Assembly: GCA_031291305.1 (NCBI GenBank)
Contig: JARLJH010000003.1
Location: forward strand, 1-41,147
Reading direction: 5' to 3'
Source: Rhodoferax sp.
Lineage (GTDB): Bacteria; Pseudomonadota; Gammaproteobacteria; Burkholderiales; Burkholderiaceae_C
Length of the DNA: 41,147 nucleotides
A model generated the notes under the pieces. It was given only the letters and a program-made list of their open reading frames with translations, made no database searches and had not been told where the DNA came from. Of the stretch, positions 1-31,295 are shown in pieces. Positions within the stretch are counted from its first letter, which is position 1. Each line of letters begins with the position of its first letter. Made by a program: the position numbers and the translations under genes.

Positions 1-2
1 GC

Positions 3-68
3 CTGATAGAAAAAGAAGCCAAGAGAAACCAAGCCCAAAAACCGGGCACCGTAAACTTCCAGCTTTAA
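3..68 (+). CDS. possible C-terminal tail of a gene that begins upstream of the window
   Basis: Frame 3 is open from the window edge to a TAA at 66-68 and encodes about 21 residues rich in Lys, Glu, Gln and Asn, ending VNFQL. The charged composition would suit the end of a real protein. The stretch is too short to assign, and frame 2 is also open across this region, so chance cannot be excluded. It would lie about 60 bases upstream of the ATPase gene and in the same direction, so the two could belong to one accessory operon. Confidence 0.22.
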   Translation: MIEKEAKRNQAQKPGTVNFQL

Positions 69-128
69 CCCGGTCAAGCCACCAGTCAGAAGTTCTCAAC
101 TTCCTCCGCCTTCAGGCTCATACCTGGA

Positions 129-2048
129 TTGGAAAATACTAGTAATCCTGTGTTTCCTGTTATTGAAGATGAGATTATGAAAGCTTTCTCGGATTCAATT
201 GTTGAGTTGCAGCCAGATTCATTTGAAAAATGCTACGTGGCCACTCCGGAATCCATTAAGTTTGACCACAAGATCAAAATGCATGTTGGTAAGAGGGAGT
301 CTGTTGTCGGTGGTGTGATCACCCGTCCAATGAAGGATAAAGATGCACAGGCGCTATATTCGAGAGTGGTGGATGTGGGTAAGAGAAGGCGACCTTTGGC
401 TCTATTGGTTCTGGGGACAGTTGGTGCAGGTAAAACAACATTCCTGCATTACACGCGAAAAATTAGGTTGCGGGATTACTTTGATGTGGCAGGGAAAGTG
501 ACTAAACCACAATGGGCGCATCTAGATTTTTTGAGTAACCCACCAGGAAATTCTGCCTCTGATTTCATTTATCGGGCGTTGCGTGAATACATCGGTGCTG
601 ATGAATTTTTGGGTGACGCCGGGGCCTGCGTTGAAAGAGCTTATGCGGATGAAATTCGCGCTCTCAAAACAGGACCTCTTTCGAGATTGGTTAACTTTCA
701 AGAAAAGATGGATGAAAAGATTTCTGATCTTATCCTTCAAGATTACCGTGATATACGACCTTATGTAGATAGGGTAATTAAGTATGCAACCAATTCACAG
801 CCATTCTTTCTAGTTATTGATAATGTTGATCAAATCGAAAATGAGGAGGAGCAGTCTCGCTTATTTACCGAGGTTTTGGCGATAGCCAGAAATCTGTCGC
901 TTAATTTAATATTAAGCCTTCGTCCTGCTACTTTTGCTAAACACCGCAACTCACCTGCCATTGATGCATTTGATTTTGAAACCGTGCAAATTGATCCTCC
1001 AAAAATATCATCCGTGATTTCAAAAAGGTTTAATCTTGCCAAATTTCTTGCTGAAGGTAAGAGGGGTGAATTTGTTGCTGAGAATGGTGCAAAAATACGA
1101 GTAGACAATGCGGCGCTAATCGTTGAGCTTTTGCAGGGTTCAGTTTTGGGTACCGAAATTGGCGCTCGCATTGAGGTACTAGCTACCGAAGATGTGCGGC
1201 TTGCTTTGCGTATGACTCGTGAATTTTTGGAACGTGGCTACACGAATCCTGGGCGTGCGATTGAGTTTCATCGACGCACTGGGCAATACATATTGCCACG
1301 ACATGAGGCATTTCGTGCTATTCTTCTTGGGACCAAAACTGTCTATAATGAGGAGTATTCTCCGATTGGTAATCCATTCGATGCAAGATTTTCTGTTAAT
1401 AGTGCTCAATTGCTTCGTTTGTATTTGTTGGCGGCAATTGTTGCTTATGCGAGTGATAATGGTTTTCGATTTATTGATGGGATTTCATTGTCGGAAAGTA
1501 TGAAGATGGTAGGGTATGGAGAGTCATATACTGATTCTGTTCTTAAGGATTTGTGTCGATATCGCTTTGCTTTTACTGCAAACCATGGCGAGCCATCTAT
1601 TTCATCTAGTTATATGCCCTCCCGATTGGGTGGATACATAATCCGCGAGTTGTTGTCAAATTTTACGTTTCTTGAAAACACTCTGTTCGATACTTATATT
1701 GCTGATCCACCAGTATGGACGGAATTGAAATCTCTTAGTCATCAAATTGATGCAGAGAGAAATATGTTGAATAGAACCCGACTTAGGGTGCGTAGAGTTT
1801 ATTGCTTTTTTAATTACTGCAAAAACTCTTATATGCCACTTCTAGAGGAAAGTCAGAAACGAGGTTTATCTTCTCAGTGGTGTTCTAATCCATTTGAAGA
1901 AAGGGCCTTAGATTTTCGGAAGGAGCTTTCTCGTGTTCTCAGATCAGCGAGAAATTCGGCCTTGCGTTCTAATCGGTTTAACGGGGATGTGGCAGGAGTC
2001 CTTGCGTACGGTGATGCTGAGGATTTGGAGGACTTCTCCAACGTGTAA
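129..2048 (+). CDS. large P-loop NTPase (AAA/STAND-like) of unknown role, probably horizontally acquired
   Basis: The 639-residue protein has a Walker A motif GTVGAGKTT near residues 97-105 and a Walker B-like FFLVIDNVDQ near 225-234. It is followed by a sensor-like strand (NLILSLRP) and a predominantly helical C-terminal half that may carry winged-helix-like segments. The ATP-binding core is what one expects of AAA, ORC or STAND ATPases, a group that includes many defence and regulatory proteins. I do not recognise the specific family. The reading frame opens at a TTG at 129 without a clear ribosome site; an ATG at 177 preceded by GAAGATGAG is an alternative start. Base composition is strikingly AT-rich (roughly 43% GC by eye) against the surrounding high-GC genes, and AT-ending codons are frequent, which points to transfer from another source. 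Partner genes, if any, lie upstream of the window. Confidence 0.8.
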   Translation: MENTSNPVFPVIEDEIMKAFSDSIVELQPDSFEKCYVATPESIKFDHKIKMHVGKRESVVGGVITRPMKDKDAQALYSRVVDVGKRRRPLALLVLGTVGAGKTTFLHYTRKIRLRDYFDVAGKVTKPQWAHLDFLSNPPGNSASDFIYRALREYIGADEFLGDAGACVERAYADEIRALKTGPLSRLVNFQEKMDEKISDLILQDYRDIRPYVDRVIKYATNSQPFFLVIDNVDQIENEEEQSRLFTEVLAIARNLSLNLILSLRPATFAKHRNSPAIDAFDFETVQIDPPKISSVISKRFNLAKFLAEGKRGEFVAENGAKIRVDNAALIVELLQGSVLGTEIGARIEVLATEDVRLALRMTREFLERGYTNPGRAIEFHRRTGQYILPRHEAFRAILLGTKTVYNEEYSPIGNPFDARFSVNSAQLLRLYLLAAIVAYASDNGFRFIDGISLSESMKMVGYGESYTDSVLKDLCRYRFAFTANHGEPSISSSYMPSRLGGYIIRELLSNFTFLENTLFDTYIADPPVWTELKSLSHQIDAERNMLNRTRLRVRRVYCFFNYCKNSYMPLLEESQKRGLSSQWCSNPFEERALDFRKELSRVLRSARNSALRSNRFNGDVAGVLAYGDAEDLEDFSNV

Positions 2049-15754: not shown

Positions 15755-15937
15755 CACGCCACTCAAGTCTGTTTCAGGTCTTTCTTTGATTTATCGCAAA
15801 AGCTGCTATAAACGTACCCTGTAAAACAAACGTGATTGCCCTTGCCCCGGCAGCACGTTCTTCAGGCCGTGAACCCGCCTTGTGATGCTGGCCAGTGCAC
15901 CCGATGCACGCTATGGCTTTTGATGAGGTTTGCGGTC

Positions 15938-17698
15938 ATGAATTTGGATCACCTGAAAATTTCCACCCGTCTGGGTGTGCTGATTGGGGCTGCGTTGGCC
16001 GGCATTGTCTTGCTGGTTGCCGCTTTTTTGTACTCTGAGAGAAGTCTGCTCTTGCAGGAGCGTGAACTGGGATTGCAGCAAGCAGTGGAAACCGCGTATG
16101 GGGTGATCCAGCACTACCATGATCTTGCTGTCAAAGGAACGATGTCGGAGGAAGCTGCCAAGCAGGCCGCCATGGCGACCATCAAACCGCTTCGGTACAG
16201 TGGGTCAGAGTATTTCTTCATTCAGGACTATCAGTTAAAGATGGTCATGCACCCCAGTCCAAAAGTTGAAGGTCAGGACGTCTCGGGGCTTAAGGACCCG
16301 AACGGCAGGCTGATGTCGGTAGACATGGACAAAATGGCGAGGGCCAACGGCTCTGGATTTGTGCCCTATATGTGGCCAAAGCCGGGCAGTCAGACTCCCG
16401 TGGATAAAGTGGCCTACGTCAAGGCATTTGAGCCCTGGGGTTGGATTATTGGGTCGGGTGTTTATGTAGACAACGTGAACGCGGTCATCATGGAGCGCGT
16501 CGTCACATCCTCTGTCGGTGCCGCTGTGCTGGCGGGACTGCTGTTGATGGTGAGCCTGCTGATCTCACGAGGCATCCTGCGCCAGCTCGGCGGTGAACCT
16601 GGTGTTGCGGCAGACATCACCCGACGCATCGCAGCGGGCGACCTGACCGCAGACATTTTGCTCAAAGACGGCGACCAATCCAGCCTGCTGTACGCCCTCA
16701 AGACCATGCGCGACAGCTTGTTGGGCATCGTCGGACAGGTCAGAGCTGGCTCTGAAGGCGTAGCCACCGCTAGTGCAGAGATTGCCCAGGGCAACAACGA
16801 CCTGAGTTCCCGCACCGAACAGCAGGCCAGTGCCTTGGAAGAGACCGCCGCCTCCATGGAACAACTGAGCGCCACCGTCAAGCAAAACGCAGAAAACGCG
16901 CAGCAAGCCAACCAAATGGCACATGCGGCCAGCAGTACGGCGCTGCAAGGCGGCGAGGTAGTGGCTGAGGTGGTAGAAACCATGAAACACATCAACGACT
17001 CGTCCAAGCGCATTTTTGACATCATTGGTGTGATTGATGGCATTGCCTTCCAAACCAACATTTTGGCCTTGAATGCAGCAGTGGAAGCTGCTCGCGCAGG
17101 TGAACAAGGCCGCGGTTTTGCGGTGGTGGCGAGCGAAGTACGTAGCTTGGCCGGGCGTTCGGCAGAGGCCGCCAAGGAAATCAAAACCTTGATTAGCGCG
17201 AGCGTAGATCGTGTGAATGAAGGCTCTCGGCTGGTCGATCAGGCTGGCATCACCATGGGGGAAGTAGTCAGCAGCATTCAACGCGTGACTAACATTATGA
17301 GTGAGATCAGCGGTGCCAGCCGTGAGCAAAGTCAGGGCGTCAGCCAAGTGGGAGAAGCGGTAACGCAAATGGACCAGGTGACACAGCAAAACGCCGCTCT
17401 GGTAGAAGAAATGGCGGCAGCCGCCAGCAGCCTAAAAACCCAGGCGCAAGACCTGGTAGGAACCGTGGCGGTGTTCAAGCTGAACGCCAATGACGCCCTT
17501 CGCGATTCTGCACGCCCCGAACGCATTCGCAGCCCGGTGACGGTTCGCTCTCCCCAGCCCGCGCCAAAGGCATACAAGAGTACCGAGCGACGAGCCTTGG
17601 CATCGCCTTCAAAGCCGACTGTACGCCCGGTGCCCCCAAAATTGGCACCCCAAACCGTGGCATCGGCCAGTGAGGATGGCAATTGGGAGTCTTTTTGA
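15938..17698 (+). CDS. methyl-accepting chemotaxis protein with single Cache sensor
   Basis: The 586-residue protein has an N-terminal membrane helix (about 10-33) and a periplasmic single Cache domain (about 35-185, with the sCache_2 pattern SEYFFIQDY...MHP and [12 protein letters not shown]). A second helix (about 190-215), a HAMP domain and a long cytoplasmic coiled coil follow. The signalling tip is unmistakable: [20 protein letters not shown]. The C terminus ends NWESF, a variant of the NWETF pentapeptide that tethers CheR and CheB, so this is likely a high-abundance-type receptor subject to full adaptation. The ATG at 15938 follows GAGG; an in-frame ATG five codons earlier is the alternative. 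sCache_2 receptors often bind small carboxylates. No che genes are in the window. Confidence 0.95.
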
Positions 17699-17896: not shown

Positions 17897-20473
17897 ATGA
17901 AGCCAGATTTCGCTCATCTGCCAGCCGCGCACGTCCACCCGTATCAAAGTGCTTTTGGCTGGGCTTCACTGGCATTGGCTGCCCCCCTACTTTGGGCGGT
18001 GTTGCATACGCAGCGCCCGGTTGTCTTGCAAGCCAACGATTTTGTGTTTTTCCACACAGCGATTGAAGTCTTCGCGGTGGTGGTGGCATTGCTGATTTTT
18101 GTCACCGGTTATCGCGCCATTTTGTCCATCCGCAAGAACGCCGTGGTACTGCTCGGCATCATGTTTCTGGGTGTCGGCCTACTGGACTTCTTGCATCTGA
18201 TGAGCTACGTGGGCATGCCTGATGCCATCAGCCCTAACAGTGCGCAAAAATCCATCTTCTTCTGGCTGGCGGCGCGTCTGCTTGGCGCAGGTGCCTTGCT
18301 GCTGTATGTCTGGCTGCGAGACGAGTCGGAGGTCAGTGCGACGCGCAAGCGCGTTGGACTGGCTGTGATGCTGCTGGTGGTTGGCGTGTTGGCAGCCATT
18401 GGGTTGCTATGGCCGCAGCAAGTGCCGACGTTGTTTGTACCTGGTGTGGGTCTGACACCACTCAAAATTGGCCTCGAATGGCTGATCATCGCCATCCATG
18501 TGGTCACTCTTGGGGTGCTATGGCAGCGCCGCCGGGCCTTGCAGCGTGAATGTGTCATGGCACTGGTGCTCGCGGCTGCCTTGTCGGCGGTGTCCGAGTT
18601 GTTTTTTACCATGCTCGGCATCCATGACCAGGGCGTGGCCAATGCCATTGGGCATGTGTACAAGGTAGTGGCCTATTTGTATTTGTTTCACGCCACCTTC
18701 AACGAGGCCCTGCAACGCCCGCTGCAACGCCTGGAAGTGCAACATTTGCGCGAAAAGCTGATTTTGAGCGCTGCACCAGATGGCGTTTTGTGGGTAGACA
18801 GCAAGGGCAAAATCTTGTTGGCCAACCCAGCCATGGAAACACTGTCGGGCTATTCCCCACAGGAGTTGACGGGGCAAAACGTTGATATTTTTTTACCTGA
18901 ACATCTGCGCGCGCGCCACGCAGTATCGATGCGCAATCATTTCATGGCCCCGCATTCCAGGCCCATGGGCCTGATGGATTTGCATCTGGTGCGTCGTGAT
19001 GGACTGATGCTGCCGGTGGATATTTCTTTGGGACATTGGGAAGATGAAGGCACGCCTTTCGCCATAGCCTACATCCGCGACCTGACTGAACGCAGACAGT
19101 TTGAGGATTCGCTGAAGCACCAAGCCACGCACGATGAACTCACCGGCCTACCCAACCGCTGGCTGTTTCGCCTGCAACTGGACCAAGCGCTGGCGCGCGC
19201 AGAGCGCTCACGTCTGCATGTAGCGGTATTGTTCATCGACCTGGACTACTTCAAATCCATCAACGACAGCTTTGGCCACAGCACTGGCGACATCTTGTTA
19301 GCGCAAGCGGGTGCGCGCATGCGCAGCGTGTTGCGTGGACACGATACGCTGGCGCGCCAGGGTGGCGATGAATTTGCCGTGCTGCTGCCCGATCTGGCCA
19401 ACCCCGACGATGCCATTGGCGTGACGGACAAATTGCTCGCCGTCCTCAAGGAGGTCTATCACCTAAAGAATCAGGATGTGTATTCAAGTGCCAGCGTCGG
19501 CGTGGCGTTTTACCCGGACGATGCCCCCACCAGCGAAACCTTGCTGCGCTACGCTGACATGGCCATGTACCAGGCCAAGGCCAATGGCCGCGGCGCGTAC
19601 GCCTTCTACTCGCAGGACATGGACCGTTCAGCACATGACAACATGCAACTGCATACCCACTTGAAGGAGGCCATGGCCCGCAATGGATTGCAACTGCACT
19701 ACCAGCCACAAGTGGATGTCGAAACCGGTGACATCGTGGGGGCTGAGGCCTTGCTACGCTGGTTTGACCCGGTGTTAGGCCACATCCCACCCGCGCGGTT
19801 TATTCCAGTGGCGGAGGCCACCGGCTTGATCTTGCCGCTGTCTGAGTGGGTGCTTGAAACGGCATGCCAGCAGATTGCCGCGTGGACACAGGCAGGCACA
19901 CCTCTGCGAGTGGCCGTGAATTTTTCGGCGCAACAGTTTCGCCAGCGCGATTTACCCGAGCAAGTGCGCCAGGCGTTGCTGCGCACAGGTGCACTGGCGC
20001 AGTGGCTCGACATTGAAATCACTGAATCGCTGGCCATGAGCCAGCCCGAGCAGGCAAGCGAACAGCTTGCAGCGCTGGTAGCCATGGGTTGCCGCGTGGC
20101 GCTGGACGACTTTGGTACCGGCTATTCGTCTCTGTCCTACCTCAAGGCGCTGCCCATTCACAAGCTCAAAATTGACAAGAGTTTCATGGACGGCATTCCC
20201 GAAGATGCCAGTGATGTGGCGATTTCGCGCGCCATCATCGCACTTGCCAAGAGCCTGGGCCTGAAATTGATCGCTGAAGGTGTGGAGACCGATGCGCAAC
20301 TGGCCTTTTTGCGTCAATACGGCTGCGACACCTACCAAGGCTGGTTGTTTGCCAAGGCGATGGACGCCGCAGCGTTGACCGAGCGGTTGCAGGCATTGAC
20401 CGAAGCAGGATTGAACGGTTCAAAAGGTTGCGCACCAAAATCCACCGAGACTGTCTGCAACGACCGGCTTTGA
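17897..20473 (+). CDS. MASE3-PAS-GGDEF-EAL bifunctional cyclic di-GMP protein
   Basis: The 858-residue inner-membrane protein starts with a multi-helix MASE3-type sensor (about residues 20-275, including the conserved LLDFLHLMSYVGMPD and FWLAARLLGA segments). A PAS domain (about 290-405), GGDEF domain (about 420-575) and EAL domain (about 595-840) follow. The cyclase motif is intact (ARQGGDEF near 489) with an RxxD inhibitory site (RGHD) five residues before it. The phosphodiesterase side also looks intact (EALLRW, DDFGTGYSSL, LKIDKSF, AEGVET). It could therefore make or degrade c-di-GMP depending on the signal. It points toward the kai operon, with 49 bases between the two stop codons, so it is not part of that operon. 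Confidence 0.95.
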   Translation: MKPDFAHLPAAHVHPYQSAFGWASLALAAPLLWAVLHTQRPVVLQANDFVFFHTAIEVFAVVVALLIFVTGYRAILSIRKNAVVLLGIMFLGVGLLDFLHLMSYVGMPDAISPNSAQKSIFFWLAARLLGAGALLLYVWLRDESEVSATRKRVGLAVMLLVVGVLAAIGLLWPQQVPTLFVPGVGLTPLKIGLEWLIIAIHVVTLGVLWQRRRALQRECVMALVLAAALSAVSELFFTMLGIHDQGVANAIGHVYKVVAYLYLFHATFNEALQRPLQRLEVQHLREKLILSAAPDGVLWVDSKGKILLANPAMETLSGYSPQELTGQNVDIFLPEHLRARHAVSMRNHFMAPHSRPMGLMDLHLVRRDGLMLPVDISLGHWEDEGTPFAIAYIRDLTERRQFEDSLKHQATHDELTGLPNRWLFRLQLDQALARAERSRLHVAVLFIDLDYFKSINDSFGHSTGDILLAQAGARMRSVLRGHDTLARQGGDEFAVLLPDLANPDDAIGVTDKLLAVLKEVYHLKNQDVYSSASVGVAFYPDDAPTSETLLRYADMAMYQAKANGRGAYAFYSQDMDRSAHDNMQLHTHLKEAMARNGLQLHYQPQVDVETGDIVGAEALLRWFDPVLGHIPPARFIPVAEATGLILPLSEWVLETACQQIAAWTQAGTPLRVAVNFSAQQFRQRDLPEQVRQALLRTGALAQWLDIEITESLAMSQPEQASEQLAALVAMGCRVALDDFGTGYSSLSYLKALPIHKLKIDKSFMDGIPEDASDVAISRAIIALAKSLGLKLIAEGVETDAQLAFLRQYGCDTYQGWLFAKAMDAAALTERLQALTEAGLNGSKGCAPKSTETVCNDRL

Positions 20474-20522: not shown

Positions 20523-23500
20523 CTACGTGCTATTAATTTGGATGCCCACCGCAGCCGGAGTCAGGAATCTGGCTTCAAATATTTCAGCCGACACCGGCTT
20601 GCTAAATAGATAGCCCTGCATTTCGTCACAGTTCAGCGAGAGGAGCTGGCGTGATTGTTTCTCGGTTTCGACGCCTTCGGCCACCACCTTGAGCTTCAGG
20701 GCATGCGCCAGGATGATGATGGCGGAGACCAGCGCTAGCCCCTGCGGGTTATCCATTTCGATCACGAAGGCGCGATCAATCTTCAGCGTGTCCACGGGCA
20801 ATTTCGCCAGGTAGCTGAGCGAGGAGAAACCGGTGCCGAAATCGTCAATGGCGAAAGTGATACCCATGGCGCGGATCGCTGTCAGCGTGTCAATGCTATG
20901 TTGGACATCCTCCATGATTAGGCTTTCGGTAATCTCCAGTTCCAATCCCTGCGCCACACGCGCATCCAGGGACAGGACCCGACTGATCTCGTTCAAGAAG
21001 TTGGTGTTACGTAACTGCAGTGCCGACACGTTCACCGCGATACGCACGGCAGGCAGGCCTGCCGCGCGCCAGCGCAGGTAATCTTCCATGGCTTTGCGCA
21101 GTGCCCAGCGCCCGACTTCATTGATCAGGCCGGTTTCTTCCAGGATCGGGATGAACATGGCTGGCGGTACCAGTCCGGTGCGCGGATCATTCCAGCGTAG
21201 CAGCGCCTCGGCACTGGTGACCTTGCCGCTCACCAGATTCACCTTCGGTTGGTAATGCAGCACGAATTCTTCCTTGTCGATTGCCTCGCGCAGCTGATTT
21301 TCCAGCGCAAGTTTGTCGGCCACCAATGCAGACATTTTTTGCATGAAAAACAGATATCGATCACCGTTTGTCTTGGCCTTTTTGAGTGCGGCCTCGGCCT
21401 TATTGAACAGTATGTTGATGTCGACACCATCATCCGGGAATACCGAGATGCCGACCTTGATGCCGATACGGAATGTGCTGTCTTTCAGGTGGAACGGATG
21501 CACCAGAAAATTGCTCATCACTTTCTCGACCAGCCCGGTCAGGTTGCCATCTGCCTTGACGTCGGGCACCACGAAAGCAAAATGGTCTGCGTCGATTCGT
21601 GCAAGCAGGTCGGCATCCCGCGTGAATTGAGTTAGCCACTGCGCCATCTGCGTCAGCAGGGAGTCACCGGCGGGTCTGCCGAGACTGTCGTTGATGTTCT
21701 TGAACCGTTCCAGATCAATCAGACCTATCGCCAGTTTGTGCCCGCCACTGATGGCGCTTTGGATATGCTGCGCTGCCCGATCGAAAAACAGGCTGCGGTT
21801 CGCAAGACCGGTGAGATCGTCGTAGTAGGCGAGGAAATTGAGCCGCTCGTGCTTTTCGATGTGATCGACGGCGAAAGCGATGTCGCCTGCCAGCTCCGTC
21901 AGCAACTTCATCTCATCGCCTTGAAAAAAATCAATCTCGCTGGCGTAAAGCGCAAATATGCCGATGGCTTCACCCGAGATGATCAGCGGCAATATCGCCA
22001 TCGAATTGATCCCTGCTTCTGCATACTGTTTGCCGAATAGGAGACTGGGGTCCTGTTGCGCATCGTTCGATATGACGGCTTTCCTCTCCAGGATCGCCCG
22101 CGCGATCAGGGTCTTTTGCATCTCTTCACTGGATGACATGACTTGTTTGATCGCGGCCAGAAGTTCGTCGCCCTTTCCTGCCGATATGACCGTGAGCGGC
22201 AGCATCGTGCGGGGGTCTACGATGACCAGCATGGCCATGCGGAACCCACCTTCTCCGACCGCGATGTTGCAGGCCTCACTGAACAACTCTTCACGGTCAT
22301 TCGCACGCACGATCAATGCGTTGATGCCGCTCAGTATGGAGAGAACCCGGTTCAGGTACTTGATACTGGCTTCAGATTTCTTCTGTTCGGTGATGTCTTC
22401 ACCAATGCTCGCGGTCCCAATCACATCGCCGGTATTTGAGCGCAGCACCGAATTGTTCCAGCGTATCAGCCTGCGCTCACCCGATCGGGTGACGATATCG
22501 TTCTCGTGATGCAGCGCCTCGGGGTGGTTGTCGAGCAGTGACGAAAAAAAATCACCTTTCAACTCGTGAAGTTCGGGCGGCACGAAAAGTTCCCACCAGT
22601 TTTTTCCGAAGACTTCATCGCGTTGCCAACCGGTCAGCAGGAGCAGGTAATCGTTGCAATAGGTGATCCGCGCCTCGCGATCCAGCATCATCGATATCAG
22701 TTCTACGTTTTCCAGCAGGTCGGTGAAGCGACGTTCACTTTCGAGCAACTTCATCTCATTTTGCTTGCGTTCAGTGATGTCGGTCAGCGTCGCAACGTAG
22801 CCAAGGAGTTCGTTTTTTGGCCCCTTCAGGTGGCCGACACTGACCAAAAGATCGAACTCCTGTCCGTTGTGTTTCAGCCTTGCCTCCAGTGAGAGGTTAC
22901 TGTTCGTTTTGATCGAATTGACAGCAGAAAAAACGCTGCCATCCAACAGGTGTAGGGGAAAAGCCTGCTCAAACAGTTGACCGATGGGGTGGTTGCCATA
23001 GAGCGCTTGCGCCTGTTTGCTGGCGCGCATGATCCGTCCGTTCTCGTCGCAGATCACGATGGCGTCGGCGGCCTGTTCCAGAATCGCGCGCGCGAGTTTT
23101 TCTTCGGTAAGCATCGCCTCATGGCGTTTCTGTTCCGTCAGATCGGTCACGACCATGCATATGAAATCAGTCTCATCCAGAACCAGGTGGCTCACTGACA
23201 AGTAGACCGGTATCGGTGTTCCGTCAGCGGCAGCGAGGACCAGCTCCTCACGGTGCTTGTTGATCGTGTTTTTTTGCAGCAGTGCGTGAACGACCTCCCA
23301 GCTCGGGGATGCGATCCAGTTGCGGATCTCTGAGCCGATCACTTTTTCGAGCGGTGTTCTGAGCATCTCAGCAAAGCGCCGATTGGCGTACAGCACCAAG
23401 CCCTGCGGTGTCAGAGTGAGCGCTCCTTCGCTCATGTTCTCGATCAATGTCCGGTAGGACTGATCGGCACCCCTGAGGGTAAACAGCTGCGCGCCAGCCA

Positions 23501-23630
23501 CGCCGGTGACGAACAGCGCGTCCGCCTCGCCGCTGAGTATCTCGCTCAGCGTCGCTTCAGCTTTTTCAAGCCGGGCGCGCAGGTCCCGGTTGTCTGTGTC
23601 CAGCTGTTTGGGGGCGAGCTTGGTGGGCAT
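20523..23630 (-). CDS. PAS/GAF/degenerate GGDEF/EAL protein encoded in the kai operon
   Basis: The cytoplasmic 1035-residue protein opens with a coiled coil and a short SGEADALFV segment. PAS domains follow at about 55-165, 175-290 and 298-415, a GAF domain at about 425-575, a GGDEF-like domain at about 595-750 and an EAL domain at about 775-1025. The GGDEF signature is replaced by RIDADHF near 677, so cyclase activity is unlikely. The EAL domain keeps EALLRW near 807, ITESL, DDFGTGFSSL, LKIDRAF, AEGVET and MQGYLF, so phosphodiesterase activity is expected. Its ATG overlaps the kaiB stop by one base (TAATG), which implies coupled translation. As I recall, similar N-terminal SGEADAL-PAS regions occur on histidine kinases next to kaiBC in other Proteobacteria; here the output is c-di-GMP turnover instead. 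Confidence 0.93.
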   Translation of the reverse strand: MPTKLAPKQLDTDNRDLRARLEKAEATLSEILSGEADALFVTGVAGAQLFTLRGADQSYRTLIENMSEGALTLTPQGLVLYANRRFAEMLRTPLEKVIGSEIRNWIASPSWEVVHALLQKNTINKHREELVLAAADGTPIPVYLSVSHLVLDETDFICMVVTDLTEQKRHEAMLTEEKLARAILEQAADAIVICDENGRIMRASKQAQALYGNHPIGQLFEQAFPLHLLDGSVFSAVNSIKTNSNLSLEARLKHNGQEFDLLVSVGHLKGPKNELLGYVATLTDITERKQNEMKLLESERRFTDLLENVELISMMLDREARITYCNDYLLLLTGWQRDEVFGKNWWELFVPPELHELKGDFFSSLLDNHPEALHHENDIVTRSGERRLIRWNNSVLRSNTGDVIGTASIGEDITEQKKSEASIKYLNRVLSILSGINALIVRANDREELFSEACNIAVGEGGFRMAMLVIVDPRTMLPLTVISAGKGDELLAAIKQVMSSSEEMQKTLIARAILERKAVISNDAQQDPSLLFGKQYAEAGINSMAILPLIISGEAIGIFALYASEIDFFQGDEMKLLTELAGDIAFAVDHIEKHERLNFLAYYDDLTGLANRSLFFDRAAQHIQSAISGGHKLAIGLIDLERFKNINDSLGRPAGDSLLTQMAQWLTQFTRDADLLARIDADHFAFVVPDVKADGNLTGLVEKVMSNFLVHPFHLKDSTFRIGIKVGISVFPDDGVDINILFNKAEAALKKAKTNGDRYLFFMQKMSALVADKLALENQLREAIDKEEFVLHYQPKVNLVSGKVTSAEALLRWNDPRTGLVPPAMFIPILEETGLINEVGRWALRKAMEDYLRWRAAGLPAVRIAVNVSALQLRNTNFLNEISRVLSLDARVAQGLELEITESLIMEDVQHSIDTLTAIRAMGITFAIDDFGTGFSSLSYLAKLPVDTLKIDRAFVIEMDNPQGLALVSAIIILAHALKLKVVAEGVETEKQSRQLLSLNCDEMQGYLFSKPVSAEIFEARFLTPAAVGIQINST

Positions 23631-23971
23631 TACGCCTTCTTTCGTATATCCAGTCCCACCAGCACGAGCTCGGTATTTGACAGGTCGCCGATGATGCGGC
23701 GCAATGGCAGCGGAAGTTTTCTGATCAGTGTCGGTATGGCAATGATCTGTTCGCCCTGGGCGAGCTGCGGCTGCTGGTACAGGTCGATCACGTCCAGTTC
23801 ATAACGCCCTTGCAGGTTTTCATCGCAGATCTTTTTGATATTGGCGATGGCGTTGACGGACTTCGGCGACTGTCCTGCCACGTACAGTTTCAATATGTAG
23901 CGGGTTGGTGCCACTTCGAGTGATGCTCTGTCTGCATCGGGCAACGCGATCCGGGCTGGGTCGGCTCTCAT
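23630..23971 (-). CDS. kaiB: KaiB clock/fold-switch protein
   Basis: The 113-residue protein matches KaiB over its whole core: [18 protein letters not shown] at about 24-41, the [13 protein letters not shown] strand-turn near 58-70, [20 protein letters not shown] near 77-96, and a final VLVGLDI. About 20 extra residues precede the core compared with cyanobacterial KaiB. In cyanobacteria KaiB switches from a tetrameric ground state to a thioredoxin-like fold that binds the CI ring of phosphorylated KaiC. The gene overlaps kaiC by four bases (ATGA) and the EAL gene by one base, so all three are one operon. No kaiA was found, as is usual outside cyanobacteria. Confidence 0.96.
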
Positions 23972-25734
23972 TTCGCGAACCCCTTTCGTTTGTTCGGCTT
24001 CGCATCGACTTTGCGGCTCAGCCCCATGTCCACGCGTCCTTGCGCGAGCTGTGCCTTTTCTGCTTTTTCCTGAACGATGATTTTCAACGAAGCGACCTCC
24101 TGCACCGCAAACTCGGCACGAAGCATGGCGATCTGTGCTTCTAGCGTCGTGCGTTTGCGTTCCAGTTCGATTCGACGCAGCTCGACTTCCTGATTGCGGA
24201 TCAACAGCGTGGCTTCGTTTTCCGCCTCTTTTGTTAGCCGCGCCGAGCCGGTCAGAACCCCCTCCGGTCCGACATAGACGTCGCGCAGTTCCACGCCGTG
24301 GTCGGTCAGCATGAACTCGCGTATCTGGTTTGAATGCGCCATGCCGCGCGATTTCAGGATGGACAGGCAGCGATTGCGTTCACCGTCGCTGTCGATATCG
24401 CGCAGCAACAGCCAGGTGTCAATCACTGATGAAATAGCGACCTCGGTCTGTTCGACGGGGTTGCCGCTCTGCGCCAAGTTGGTGAACAGACCCGTGATCT
24501 GCCGGGTCTTCAGAAAATCCACCAACCGCATCAACATCGATTTGACTTCGATCTCGTTGTCTCCGATGACGTAACTGTTCAGCGGATCCAGGATTACCAC
24601 CTGTGGTCTGAAGTCTTCGATGGCTTTGTGCTTCATGGCCAGATGTGTTTCCAAGCCTGCGGACGATGGACGGTTCGCGTGGATTTGCAAAAGGCCTTTG
24701 ATGACCCACTGTTGCAAGTCGATTCCGATGGAACGCATATTGCGCCCGATTTGATCGGGAGATTCTTCAAAGGAGAAGTAGAGTACGCGGTCGCCTCGTC
24801 GGCATGCGGAGTCGGCGAAGTGGGCCGCAAGACTGCTTTTGCCAGTTCCCGCCGTACCTGAGATCAACACGCTGCTGCCGCGGTAATAGCCCTTGCCGCC
24901 CAGCATCGCATCGAGACGCGCAACGCCGCTGGAAAGACGTTCACTGGTGACGATGTGCTTGAGACCCAGCGAGGTGACAGGTAGCACCGAAATGCCGTCT
25001 TCATTGATCAGAAACGGGTATTCATTGGTACCGTGGGTCGAGCCACGGTACTTGACCACACGCAAGCGCCGCGAGGAGGCCTGCTCGCTTACCCGATGGT
25101 CGAGCACGATGACGCAGTCGGACACGTATTCTTCCAGCCCCTGACGCGTCAGCGTTCCATCGCCGCGTTCGCCGGTGATGATGGCGGTGACGCCCTTGTC
25201 TTTCAGCCAACGGAACAATCGGCGCAATTCAGCACGCAAAATAGCCTGGTTGGGCAATCCTGTAAACAGCGACTCGACCGTATCGAGCACGACCCGCTTG
25301 GCGCCGACGGCATCGATGGCAGATCCCAGACGAATGAACAGACCTTCCAGATCGAATTGGCCGCTTTGTTCGATCTCGCTGCGTTCGATGTAGACAAAAT
25401 CCAGAACGATTTTTTTGCGCGCGACCAGATCATTCAAGTCGAATCCGAGTGAGGCCACGTTCTGGGTCAGGTCCTGGGCGGTTTCTTCGAACGCCATAAA
25501 CACGCCCGGTTCATTGAACTGTGTCGCCCCATGTACCAGAAACTCCATCGCCAGCAGCGTCTTGCCACAGCCTGCACCGCCGCATACCAGCGTTGGTCGG
25601 CCTTTGGGCAATCCGCCACCGGTGATCTCGTCCAACCCAACGATGCCAGTCAGGCTTTTGGGCAGGTGGGGCCTGGTGTCTTGTGCTCGCGAGGATTGCC
25701 GCGTTGCCGGGGATTGACGTTTGGGCGTATTCAC
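23968..25734 (-). CDS. kaiC: KaiC double-domain ATPase/autokinase
   Basis: The 588-residue protein has two RecA-like domains. CI carries Walker A GGAGCGKT (52-59) and catalytic Glu83-Glu84. CII carries Walker A GTAGTGKS (293-300) and Glu323-Glu324. The CII phosphorylation region aligns without gaps to cyanobacterial KaiC, placing Thr430, Ser435 and Ser436 at the positions of Thr426, Ser431 and Thr432. Autophosphorylation is therefore plausible, with Ser in place of the second main Thr. After the CII end there is an added segment of about 90 residues, mostly charged coiled coil (505-565), in place of the short cyanobacterial tail. The start is a GTG at 25734 with AAGGGA upstream. It heads the operon kaiC-kaiB-EAL. 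The biological output, rhythm or stress timer, is unknown here. Confidence 0.96.
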
Positions 25735-29996: not shown

Positions 29997-31295
29997 ATGT
30001 CACAAACGCCTGTGATCACGCCAGATCAGTTGCAGGTGGGCATGTATGTTCACCTGGACCTGAAATGGTTTGATCACCCGTTTGCGTTTAGCCACTTCAA
30101 GATCACCAGCGAAGACCAGATCAAGACGATTCGCGGTCTTGGGCTGAAAACCTTGCGGTTCAGTCCGGAACTCAGCGACGCGAAGCTGCAGACGGTGTTG
30201 TCGCCCTTGGAGGCCGCCCCGGATCCGGTGGTTGCCAAAGCGGTTGTGCCCGAACTTCAGCTGGAACCGTCTCCCGCCATGCAGGCCAAGCGCGCCATGA
30301 TGGCGCAGATGAAAGTGCGCCGTGAAGCCGCCGAGCGCATTGAGCGGGCTTTTGTGGATACCGCTCAAACCGTGCGTGACATCGAAAGGGACCTCTATAG
30401 CCGCCCAGCTGAGACGGTACAACAAGCCAGCAAACTGGTGCAGAAGATTGCCGACTCGATTCTCAGCGCTCCCGAGCTGGCCATTCAGGTGATGGGCGAC
30501 AAGCTGGGTGGCGAGGAGTTGTACTTCCATTCATTGAACGTCACCATGCTGTCCATGATGATGGCGCGCGACCTGAGCTTGCCGGTGGAGGTGGTGGGCG
30601 TGCTGGGGGTAGGTGCCTTGCTGCATGACATTGGTCGCAAGGAAGTCCCCGACAAAATACTGATGAAGACCGAGCCGTTGACACCGGCAGAGCGCAACTT
30701 TTTCGAGCTGCACCCCACCTACGGCGTGGAAATGGCCAAGCGCATGCACCTTGCTTCCACCGCACTGGCCATCATCGGCCAGCACCATGAGCTGTTTGAT
30801 GGCACGGGTTTCCCCAACAAGCTCAAGGGTGAGGCGGTTCATCTGCTGTCGCGTATCGTGGTCATTGCCAACTATTACGACGAGTTGTGCAACCCGGTGT
30901 CGATTGCCGACGCACTGACGCCGCATGAAGCGCTGTCGCTGATGTTTGCCAAATTGCGCGGCAAGTTTGACCCCAAGCTGTTGAGTGCCTTCATCCGATG
31001 CTTGGGGGTGTATCCGCCTGGCACCATCGTGCAACTCTCCAATGGTTTGATCGGCATGGTGTCCACGGTGAATACGGCGCGGCCCATGAAGCCCATTGTG
31101 GTGATCTATGACGCGGAGGTACCCAAGGAAGAAGCCATTCTGTTGGACATGGACTCGCAGAGCGACCTGAATATTGGCAAGGCTATCCGGCCTGTGCAGG
31201 TGCCGCGTGAGGTGTACAACTACCTGAGCCCGCGCAAACGCGTGAGCTACTACTTTGACTCGGCCGCCAAGCGGCCCGCCGCAGGCCACCCATGA
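29997..31295 (+). CDS. HD-GYP-type cyclic di-GMP phosphodiesterase with DUF3391-like N-terminal domain
   Basis: The 432-residue protein starts with a DUF3391-like region (VITPDQLQVGMYVHLDLKWF, about 5-150) and carries an HD-GYP domain (about 165-345). The metal-binding HD is in LLHDIGRKEVPDKIL near 209, followed by IIGQHHELFDGTGFPNKLKG, in which the usual GYP triad reads GFP. The hydrolytic residues look complete, so cleavage of c-di-GMP to pGpG or GMP is expected; the Tyr-to-Phe change is seen in some family members. No membrane helix is present. The gene follows uppP after four bases and overlaps the histidine kinase gene by four bases (ATGA), so its activity or abundance is probably linked to both. 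Confidence 0.93.
   Translation: MSQTPVITPDQLQVGMYVHLDLKWFDHPFAFSHFKITSEDQIKTIRGLGLKTLRFSPELSDAKLQTVLSPLEAAPDPVVAKAVVPELQLEPSPAMQAKRAMMAQMKVRREAAERIERAFVDTAQTVRDIERDLYSRPAETVQQASKLVQKIADSILSAPELAIQVMGDKLGGEELYFHSLNVTMLSMMMARDLSLPVEVVGVLGVGALLHDIGRKEVPDKILMKTEPLTPAERNFFELHPTYGVEMAKRMHLASTALAIIGQHHELFDGTGFPNKLKGEAVHLLSRIVVIANYYDELCNPVSIADALTPHEALSLMFAKLRGKFDPKLLSAFIRCLGVYPPGTIVQLSNGLIGMVSTVNTARPMKPIVVIYDAEVPKEEAILLDMDSQSDLNIGKAIRPVQVPREVYNYLSPRKRVSYYFDSAAKRPAAGHP

What the first reader, a model, noticed from the sequence alone, without database searches (positions are those of the whole stretch)
20523..25734. kaiC-kaiB operon wired to a cyclic di-GMP phosphodiesterase
Seen: kaiC, kaiB and a 1035-residue PAS/GAF/degenerate GGDEF/EAL gene overlap by 4 and 1 bases, so they are one translationally coupled unit. 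Known: in cyanobacteria Kai output runs through histidine kinases, and as I recall many proteobacterial kaiBC loci carry PAS histidine kinases. Inference: here the same sensor-type N terminus is joined to an EAL output, so a Kai timer or stress switch would directly set c-di-GMP and thus motility or biofilm state. I do not know of a described Kai-to-EAL system in a Burkholderiales bacterium.
Basis: partly seen in the sequence, partly recalled or inferred. Interest (0 to 1): 0.85.

Follow-up and report, generated by a model that had tools for sequence, protein, structure and literature searches.

The report
Kai clock operon's portable output head
A bacterial clock-type gene pair (kaiC-kaiB) is followed by an enzyme predicted to destroy the signal molecule cyclic di-GMP, and the front end of that enzyme turns out to be a shared plug that many other microbes use to attach quite different outputs to the same clock genes.

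Summary
In detail: kaiC, kaiB and a 1035-aa PAS-PAS-PAS-GAF-GGDEF(degenerate)-EAL gene overlap by 4 and 1 bp. The adjacency is not new: a 2011 Burkholderiales genome paper says non-cyanobacterial kaiC-kaiB clusters are mostly followed by a histidine kinase or GGDEF/EAL protein. What I did not find described is the protein's first ~187 residues. A helix, a beta-hairpin and one PAS domain form a portable head, present in 76 of the 80 best-matching kaiB loci (15 named phyla, two archaeal), joined to histidine kinases, GGDEF-EAL, HD-GYP or sigma-54 activators. In 299 same-family genomes near-full matches to the head occur in 12, each just downstream of kaiB, and in 0 of 280 kaiB-less genomes. Head divergence tracks KaiC and KaiB (Spearman 0.52, 0.55); in 38 kinase operons the kinase domain does not (0.06). 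On a KaiC tree the effector behind the head changes at least 16 times; the window KaiC is 88% identical to a Sideroxydans KaiC with a kinase output. One natural protein fuses KaiB to head-GGDEF-EAL. Best reading: the head reads KaiC/KaiB state and here drives a c-di-GMP phosphodiesterase. Binding, activity and timing are untested.

The parts
23968..25734 (-). kaiC, 588 aa, two KaiC ATPase domains
   Evidence: PF06745 352 bits, 2 stretches; Walker A and FEE motifs in both halves; phosphosite equivalents T430, S435, S436
23971..24285 (-). C-terminal tail of KaiC (105 residues), likely coiled coil
   Evidence: tail length median 105 in 83 loci with the head, 32 in 19 loci without it (7 of these 19 have 91 or more); resembles in position the tail of R. 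sphaeroides KaiC (PMC10076222, abstract and passages)
23630..23971 (-). kaiB, 113 aa
   Evidence: PF07689 98.3 bits; 4-bp overlap with kaiC
20523..23630 (-). output gene, 1035 aa: head-PAS-PAS-GAF-GGDEF(degenerate)-EAL
23070..23630 (-). Kai output head, residues 1-187 (helix, hairpin, PAS1)
   Evidence: only this part is shared with Gallionella-type kai histidine kinases; AlphaFold2 model of residues 1-194, mean pLDDT 91
23478..23612 (-). helix 7-32 and beta-hairpin 38-51 of the head; no Pfam match, and no NCBIfam or PDB match among those listed
   Evidence: 25 of 44 families listed; 60 of 72 listed; alignment A3
22341..23069 (-). PAS2 and PAS3, residues 188-430, variable between relatives
21864..22301 (-). 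GAF domain, residues 444-589
21363..21830 (-). GGDEF domain, residues 601-756, signature DADHF in place of GGDEF
20595..21299 (-). EAL domain, residues 778-1012, catalytic-type motifs intact

Best explanation
A KaiA-less KaiB-KaiC timer or energy-state switch whose output is a c-di-GMP phosphodiesterase. Shown by sequence: the operon; an EAL domain with its catalytic-type motifs and a degenerate GGDEF; and a head (helix, hairpin, PAS1) shared with the output proteins of other kaiC-kaiB operons. Inferred: the head is the receiver for KaiC/KaiB state. KaiC, probably in the phospho- or ADP-dependent form that captures KaiB, would bind the head or release it, change the packing of the head's coiled-coil dimer, and pass this through the PAS-GAF chain to the EAL dimer, so that local c-di-GMP is degraded in one Kai state and spared in the other. 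The effector is interchangeable: relatives carry a histidine kinase, an HD-GYP phosphodiesterase, another GGDEF-EAL or a sigma-54 activator behind the same head. Which Kai surface touches the head (KaiB or the KaiC tail) and which state activates are not known.
For: Location: head model A3 gives near-full matches in 12 of 299 family genomes, each within 200 bp downstream of a kaiB match, and none in the 280 genomes without KaiB (Fisher p 6e-17). In 328 phylum genomes there are 10 near-full matches, all next to kaiB (p 6e-12). Thirteen of these genomes supplied no row to A3. In 45 genomes chosen because they hold a head locus, 47 of 49 strong hits are kai-adjacent. Coupling: over 80 operons head-KaiC Spearman 0.52, head-KaiB 0.55, KaiB-KaiC 0.50 (0 of 300 permutations as high); in 38 kinase operons head-KaiC 0.53 but kinase ATPase domain-KaiC 0.06. 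Interchange: on a quick KaiC tree at least 16 effector changes among 70 head-bearing rows, 22 with 19 further rows; one clade for 10 EAL rows rejected (p-AU 8e-43). Physical link: L096 has KaiB in one reading frame with head-PAS-GAF-GGDEF-EAL, and near-identical L099 has them separate. Output: of 17 complete, non-duplicate EAL outputs 13 match all seven motif patterns (two of these with Arg at the last Gln) and 17 keep EAL and DDFGTG.
Against: No biochemical evidence. The head is not absolutely tied to kai: one strong hit (L254) and two divergent-head hits (L259, L260) have no KaiB nearby; one more strong hit sits at a contig edge (L255). KaiB-less genome G404 has a partial match (E 2e-8, positions 2-31), left out of the Fisher count, though beside a KaiC piece. 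The effector half (58-64% identical over GAF-GGDEF-EAL) occurs in 7 of 25 genomes searched and lacks an adjacent kaiB in 2 of the 7, one in the window's genus. Other kai loci lack the head: 19 of 29 kaiB-bearing genomes in the phylum sample, many of them kaiB-kaiC clusters with a short KaiC. Operon inheritance alone gives some distance correlation. The L096 fusion is one metagenome bin, and its model is too weak to show an interface (pTM 0.46).
Confidence: 0.6

Rival explanations
1. The head is an ordinary dimerising signalling helix plus PAS sensor for redox, oxygen or a ligand. The operon co-expresses an environmental c-di-GMP phosphodiesterase with KaiBC, and Kai proteins do not touch it.
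For: PAS1 resembles heme and flavin PAS domains, with DosP and FixL among the best structure or sequence matches; PAS2, PAS3 and GAF look like further sensors.
Against: An ordinary helix-PAS unit should be found all over genomes, but near-full matches are almost confined to kai loci, and its divergence follows KaiB and KaiC but not the attached kinase domain.
Confidence: 0.25
2. Information runs the other way: the head-bearing protein is an input that senses environment and c-di-GMP or GTP and resets KaiC.
For: PMC13001216 (passages): expressing a c-di-GMP phosphodiesterase lengthens the S. elongatus period by 0.6 h, though c-di-GMP had no consistent direct effect on Kai proteins in vitro. CikA, a kinase with a KaiB-binding pseudo-receiver, fine-tunes clock resetting (PMC13001216 and PMC12632262, passages).
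Against: The effectors behind the same head are unrelated enzymes and sigma-54 activators, which fits an output plug better than a common input.
Confidence: 0.12
3. The EAL domain is not an active phosphodiesterase but a c-di-GMP receptor, or the window EAL gene is a chance neighbour kept by drift.
For: The GGDEF half is degenerate, and GGDEF-EAL receptors exist (LapD-type; recalled).
Against: Seven EAL motifs are intact in the window and most relatives; the head is also fused to HD-GYP proteins, a second c-di-GMP phosphodiesterase fold; collinear head-EAL proteins occur in several lineages (L055, L056, L058, L059).
Confidence: 0.1

Closest known systems
kaiC-kaiB-PAS histidine kinase operons of Rhodopseudomonas palustris, Rhodobacter sphaeroides and Bradyrhizobium (PMC4794148, PMC6627678, PMC3899966; passages)
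   Same: Same gene order, and no KaiA match in the window genome; Methylobacterium, Methylorubrum and Azospirillum relatives carry the same head on a kinase.
   Different: The effector here is GGDEF-EAL, not a kinase. Whether the R. palustris or R. sphaeroides kinases carry the head was not tested.
kaiC-kaiB clusters followed by GGDEF/EAL proteins in the Ramlibacter tataouinensis genome paper (PMC3164672, section 17 read whole and legends seen)
   Same: The adjacency itself is reported there as a class.
   Different: That section describes no head shared between kinases and EAL proteins and names no HD-GYP or sigma-54 outputs; its RtaNt module is KaiB-like and belongs to kaiB-less kinases. I did not compare sequences with RtaNt.
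SasA and CikA, Kai outputs of cyanobacteria (recalled; CikA-KaiB binding also in PMC12632262, passages)
   Same: A dedicated N- or C-terminal module reads KaiC or KaiB state and controls an effector.
   Different: SasA uses a KaiB-like domain and CikA a pseudo-receiver; this head is helix-hairpin-PAS, with no KaiB or receiver match in the window protein.
KaiBC of R. sphaeroides with coiled-coil KaiC dodecamer (PMC10076222, abstract and passages)
   Same: KaiA-less; long C-terminal KaiC tail; two serines at the phosphosites (S413/S414 there, S435/S436 here).
   Different: Dodecamer and register shift not tested here; no output protein turned up in the passages seen (0 occurrences of 'histidine kinase').
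DosP and other PAS-GGDEF-EAL phosphodiesterases
   Same: Best NCBIfam matches of the effector half are phosphodiesterases (DibA, Tlr1612 family, DosP); best PDB sequence match of PAS1 is DosP.
   Different: The equivalog cut-offs of these are far from met (for example DosP 375 of 857 bits); DosP is oxygen-sensing and, as recalled, not kai-linked.

Membership tests
KaiA-less KaiB-KaiC system | KaiC with two RecA-type halves, Walker A and paired catalytic Glu in both | tested here: met
KaiA-less KaiB-KaiC system | phosphorylatable pair in CII | tested here: met
   S435-S436 in the window; SS in 79 of 83 head-linked KaiC
KaiA-less KaiB-KaiC system | KaiB present, KaiA absent | tested here: met
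   (KaiA control found in S. elongatus)
KaiA-less KaiB-KaiC system | KaiC autophosphorylation, KaiB binding, timing | not testable with these tools
   needs biochemistry
circadian clock | sustained or entrainable ~24-h rhythm | not testable with these tools
   no expression data
EAL c-di-GMP phosphodiesterase | EAL motif and catalytic-type residues | tested here: met
   EALLR, VNVS, EITES, DDFGTG, LKID, AEGVE, QGY; residue roles recalled
EAL c-di-GMP phosphodiesterase | hydrolysis of c-di-GMP | not testable with these tools
   needs assay
GGDEF diguanylate cyclase | GG(D/E)EF active-site signature | tested here: not met
   DADHF in the window; degenerate in 9 of 18 distinct kai EAL outputs
SasA-type output | KaiB-like N-terminal domain on a histidine kinase | tested here: not met
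   no KaiB domain and no kinase domain in the 1035-aa protein
Kai output head (defined here) | match to helix-hairpin model A3 next to kaiB | tested here: met
   window E 2e-24 (the window is row 1 of A3, so by construction); 13 genomes not in A3 also meet it

The most novel reading that the evidence does not exclude
The helix-hairpin-PAS head is an undescribed, ancient and general Kai output adaptor: a plug that docks on the KaiB-KaiC complex (KaiB face or KaiC tail) and has repeatedly changed effector (at least 16 changes among 70 head-bearing operons on a KaiC tree), between histidine kinases, two unrelated c-di-GMP phosphodiesterase folds (EAL, HD-GYP) and sigma-54 activators, in bacteria and archaea. 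It would be the non-cyanobacterial counterpart of SasA and CikA and would make c-di-GMP one of the main outputs of KaiBC systems in Pseudomonadota (15 of 26 classified head-bearing loci in that phylum).
Probability: 0.45. Interest if true: 0.85.

Novelty: new variant of a known kind. Interest (0 to 1): 0.72.

Why it matters
How KaiBC systems outside cyanobacteria pass on their state is, as far as I know, open: many lack KaiA and their outputs are listed only as nearby signalling genes. A single ~187-residue head, present in 15 named phyla and swapped between effector types, gives one small protein piece to test for KaiB or KaiC binding. If it binds, output genes can be predicted from sequence in many microbes, including phototrophs (Chromatiaceae with EAL, Chlorobiaceae with HD-GYP), and a clock or energy timer is tied directly to c-di-GMP, which governs motility and biofilm. 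The head could also serve as a ready-made coupler for clock-controlled enzymes in laboratory strains.

Tried and rejected
The idea that kaiB-EAL adjacency is undescribed was dropped after reading PMC3164672. I recall, unverified, that the Legionella pneumophila kai operon has a similar third gene; the paper on it is not held and gene-name searches found nothing.

The idea that all kai EAL outputs descend from one fusion was rejected for 10 EAL rows by the AU test (p 8e-43). It is not rejected for the window-type four (p 0.09).

The idea that seven family kai outputs are headless was my first result. It was revised when their N termini showed a divergent helix-GEVDxV-hairpin head (profile comparison 89% probability, E 2e-6 over 33 columns). 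Seven of the eight kai-adjacent A8 hits are A8's own rows; only G278 was independent.

A KaiB-head interface from AlphaFold2 of the L096 fusion: the first alignment was visibly wrong and was not used; the second gave pTM 0.46 and says nothing about docking. A scan of viral contigs with the EAL protein found no relative. A first gene caller that took the longest open frames gave wrong neighbours in high-GC loci and was replaced. A first phosphosite pattern missed many rows and was replaced by alignment columns. Sixteen of 122 outputs stayed unclassified by my patterns (cut, short or of another kinase type) and are reported as such. The figure of 22 effector changes counted 19 rows without the standard head; a recount on head-bearing rows gave 16.
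Full report
Observation. Pfam gives KaiC, KaiB and, in the third, three PAS stretches, GAF, GGDEF and EAL. EAL motifs are intact; GGDEF reads DADHF. The window is contig C7 of a 5.0-Mb genome with one KaiB, no KaiA match, and one full KaiC.

Prior art. PMC3164672 (section 17 read whole) compared kaiC contexts in 2011 and says that in kaiC-kaiB clusters, except in cyanobacteria, almost all have a histidine kinase or GGDEF/EAL protein immediately downstream. So the adjacency is a known class. PMC4794148, PMC6627678 and PMC3899966 (passages) describe kaiC-kaiB-PAS kinase operons in R. palustris, R. sphaeroides and Bradyrhizobium. PMC13001216 (passages) links c-di-GMP and the S. elongatus period, apparently indirectly. 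Ten searches of a partial open library listed no paper whose listing points to a shared output head; I judged most of them from listings and abstracts only.

Survey. KaiB occurs in 19 of 299 genomes of the same family and in 2 of 4 of the same genus, the window's own included, so the system is patchy. Gene order around them is kaiC-kaiB, often a second kaiB, then one large signalling gene. In 76 of 80 this gene begins with the same head; the four misses are L063 (its open frame lacks the helix but keeps PAS1), L100, L107 and L114. The 76 fall in 15 named phyla, two archaeal, plus one unplaced. Effectors in the 76: kinase 34, EAL 11, HD-GYP 11, sigma-54 9, unclassified 11; in the 27 from Pseudomonadota: kinase 11, EAL 10, HD-GYP 5, unclassified 1. 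The sample is biased towards KaiB like the window's.

Effectors overall. Over all 124 loci with an output, 122 after dropping two duplicates: with head, kinase 47, EAL 13, HD-GYP 13, sigma-54 9, unclassified 16; without the standard head, kinase 14, EAL 5, GGDEF 5. Two of the 122 (L199, weak head match; L219) come from genomes in which no KaiB was found. HD-GYP and sigma-54 identities rest on Pfam over 27 proteins (HD_5 in 13, Sigma54_activat in 8) and on motifs.

The head. Residues 1-187 of the window protein match kai kinases of Gallionella, Sideroxydans and another Nitrosomonadales bin at 57-62% (blastp), with no match beyond residue 187. GAF-GGDEF-EAL matches other proteins, among them same-family proteins without an adjacent kaiB (63-64% identity). 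So the protein is a mosaic of a kai head and a phosphodiesterase body. AlphaFold2 predicts helix 7-32, hairpin 38-51, helix 52-64 and a PAS fold, mean pLDDT 91. No Pfam family starts before residue 59, no listed NCBIfam family (25 of 44 shown) before residue 54, and listed PDB sequence matches (60 of 72) start at position 51 or later.

Specificity. Model A3 (38 rows) was run on the same 299 family genomes: 12 near-full matches (E 6.3e-15 or better), each within 200 bp downstream of a kaiB, one per genome; three kaiB-less genomes have only weak partial matches (E over 2e-4). In 328 phylum genomes: 10 near-full matches, E 1.1e-8 or better, all next to kaiB, among 29 kaiB-bearing genomes. One partial match in a kaiB-less genome (G404, E 2e-8) sits beside a 78-residue KaiC piece; two more are weak (G368, G400). 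In 45 genomes reached through my loci there are 49 strong hits (E 1.1e-17 or better): 47 beside kai, one at a contig edge (L255), one not near kai (L254) (positions checked for all 45 loci, where 42 of the 45 lie within 200 bp of a KaiB frame or are fused to one and three within 0.5 kb). Five weaker hits were not counted; one of them (L256) is a kinase away from kai, the other four were not looked at. The tool scored only the best ~20 candidates per genome in the two large runs, so weak matches may be missed.

Divergent head. Seven family kai outputs that fail A3 carry a related head (A8); an eighth, G278, was found by it. With both models 19 of 19 kaiB-bearing family genomes have a head beside kaiB; seven of them rest on A8, six of these by construction. 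Two further A8 hits lie away from kaiB (L259, L260) on kinases followed by REC-EAL. Of the eight kai sites with this head, four have a direct EAL output and three have a kinase followed by REC-EAL (in one of these, L045, the head lies in a separate short frame); one (L051) has a kinase only. The end point is thus mostly the same enzyme, wired directly or through a likely phosphorelay.

Coevolution and swapping. Distances of the head follow KaiC (0.52) and KaiB (0.55) as well as KaiB follows KaiC (0.50), 80 operons, 0 of 300 permutations as high. In 38 kinase operons the kinase ATPase domain does not follow KaiC (0.06), and in 200 resamplings of taxa the difference never fell to zero. The KaiC tree (89 rows, quick) needs at least 22 changes of effector, 16 among its 70 head-bearing rows; well-supported branches of the 89-row tree force at least 6 for EAL and 4 for HD-GYP. 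In a careful 30-row tree 10 changes are needed, the eight rows around the window (100/98 support) hold four EAL, three kinase and one HD-GYP output, and one clade for 10 EAL rows is rejected. The window KaiC is 88% identical to the Sideroxydans KaiC with a kinase output.

Fusion. L096 encodes KaiB, head, PAS, GAF, GGDEF and EAL in one frame behind kaiC and another kaiB. The near-identical L099 has them as two genes, and the two differ by a short deletion across the stop and start. It is one metagenome bin.

KaiC type. Head-linked KaiC have tails of median 105 residues against 32 in those without the standard head, though 7 of those 19 also have long tails; two serines stand at the phosphosites in 79 of 83. 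This resembles R. sphaeroides KaiC, whose tail makes a coiled-coil dodecamer and which tracks the ATP-to-ADP ratio (PMC10076222, abstract and passages).

Reading. Shown: the anatomy, the near-exclusive placement of the head, its coevolution with Kai and not with the kinase effector, and repeated effector change. Inferred: that the head reads KaiC/KaiB state and that the EAL domain is active and controlled by it. I put the combined model at 0.6. Novelty lies in the head and its range of effectors, not in the kaiB-EAL adjacency.

Noticed in passing
window 17897-20473 (+) and 29997-31295 (+): Two more c-di-GMP-type proteins flank the operon: a MASE3-PAS-GGDEF-EAL protein ending 49 bp from the kai EAL gene (convergent) and a DUF3391-HD-GYP protein overlapping a PAS histidine kinase gene by 4 bp.
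   Followed up: no
window 15836-17698 (+): A Cache-type methyl-accepting chemotaxis protein lies near the kai operon; whether it is a target of local c-di-GMP is unknown.
   Followed up: no
L096:2242-5332: Natural in-frame fusion of a second KaiB to head-PAS-GAF-GGDEF-EAL; the sister locus L099 is unfused.
   Followed up: partly
L085, L090, L101, L105, L109, L119, L124, L125, L126: Kai output heads fused to sigma-54 activator domains, all nine in Thermodesulfobacteriota (6) and Myxococcota (3) records.
   Followed up: partly
L190, L203, L208, L210, L213, L215: A different kai layout (kaiB-kaiC, short KaiC, no head) carries PAS-PAS-GGDEF genes close by, so c-di-GMP synthesis rather than degradation may be the partner there.
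   Followed up: no
L254:6019-11271, L259:4456-8586, L260:7291-11796: Kinases with a (divergent) Kai head but no kaiB nearby; the latter two are followed by REC-EAL genes. Possible orphan outputs.
   Followed up: partly
L219:6828-9944: In a genome without KaiB, a head-PAS-GAF-HD-GYP gene sits just downstream of a 78-residue KaiC piece: apparently a decaying kai operon.
   Followed up: partly
window 1-2000: G+C drops to 0.42 against 0.55-0.63 elsewhere; a 639-aa open frame there has only a weak AAA_16 match.
   Followed up: no
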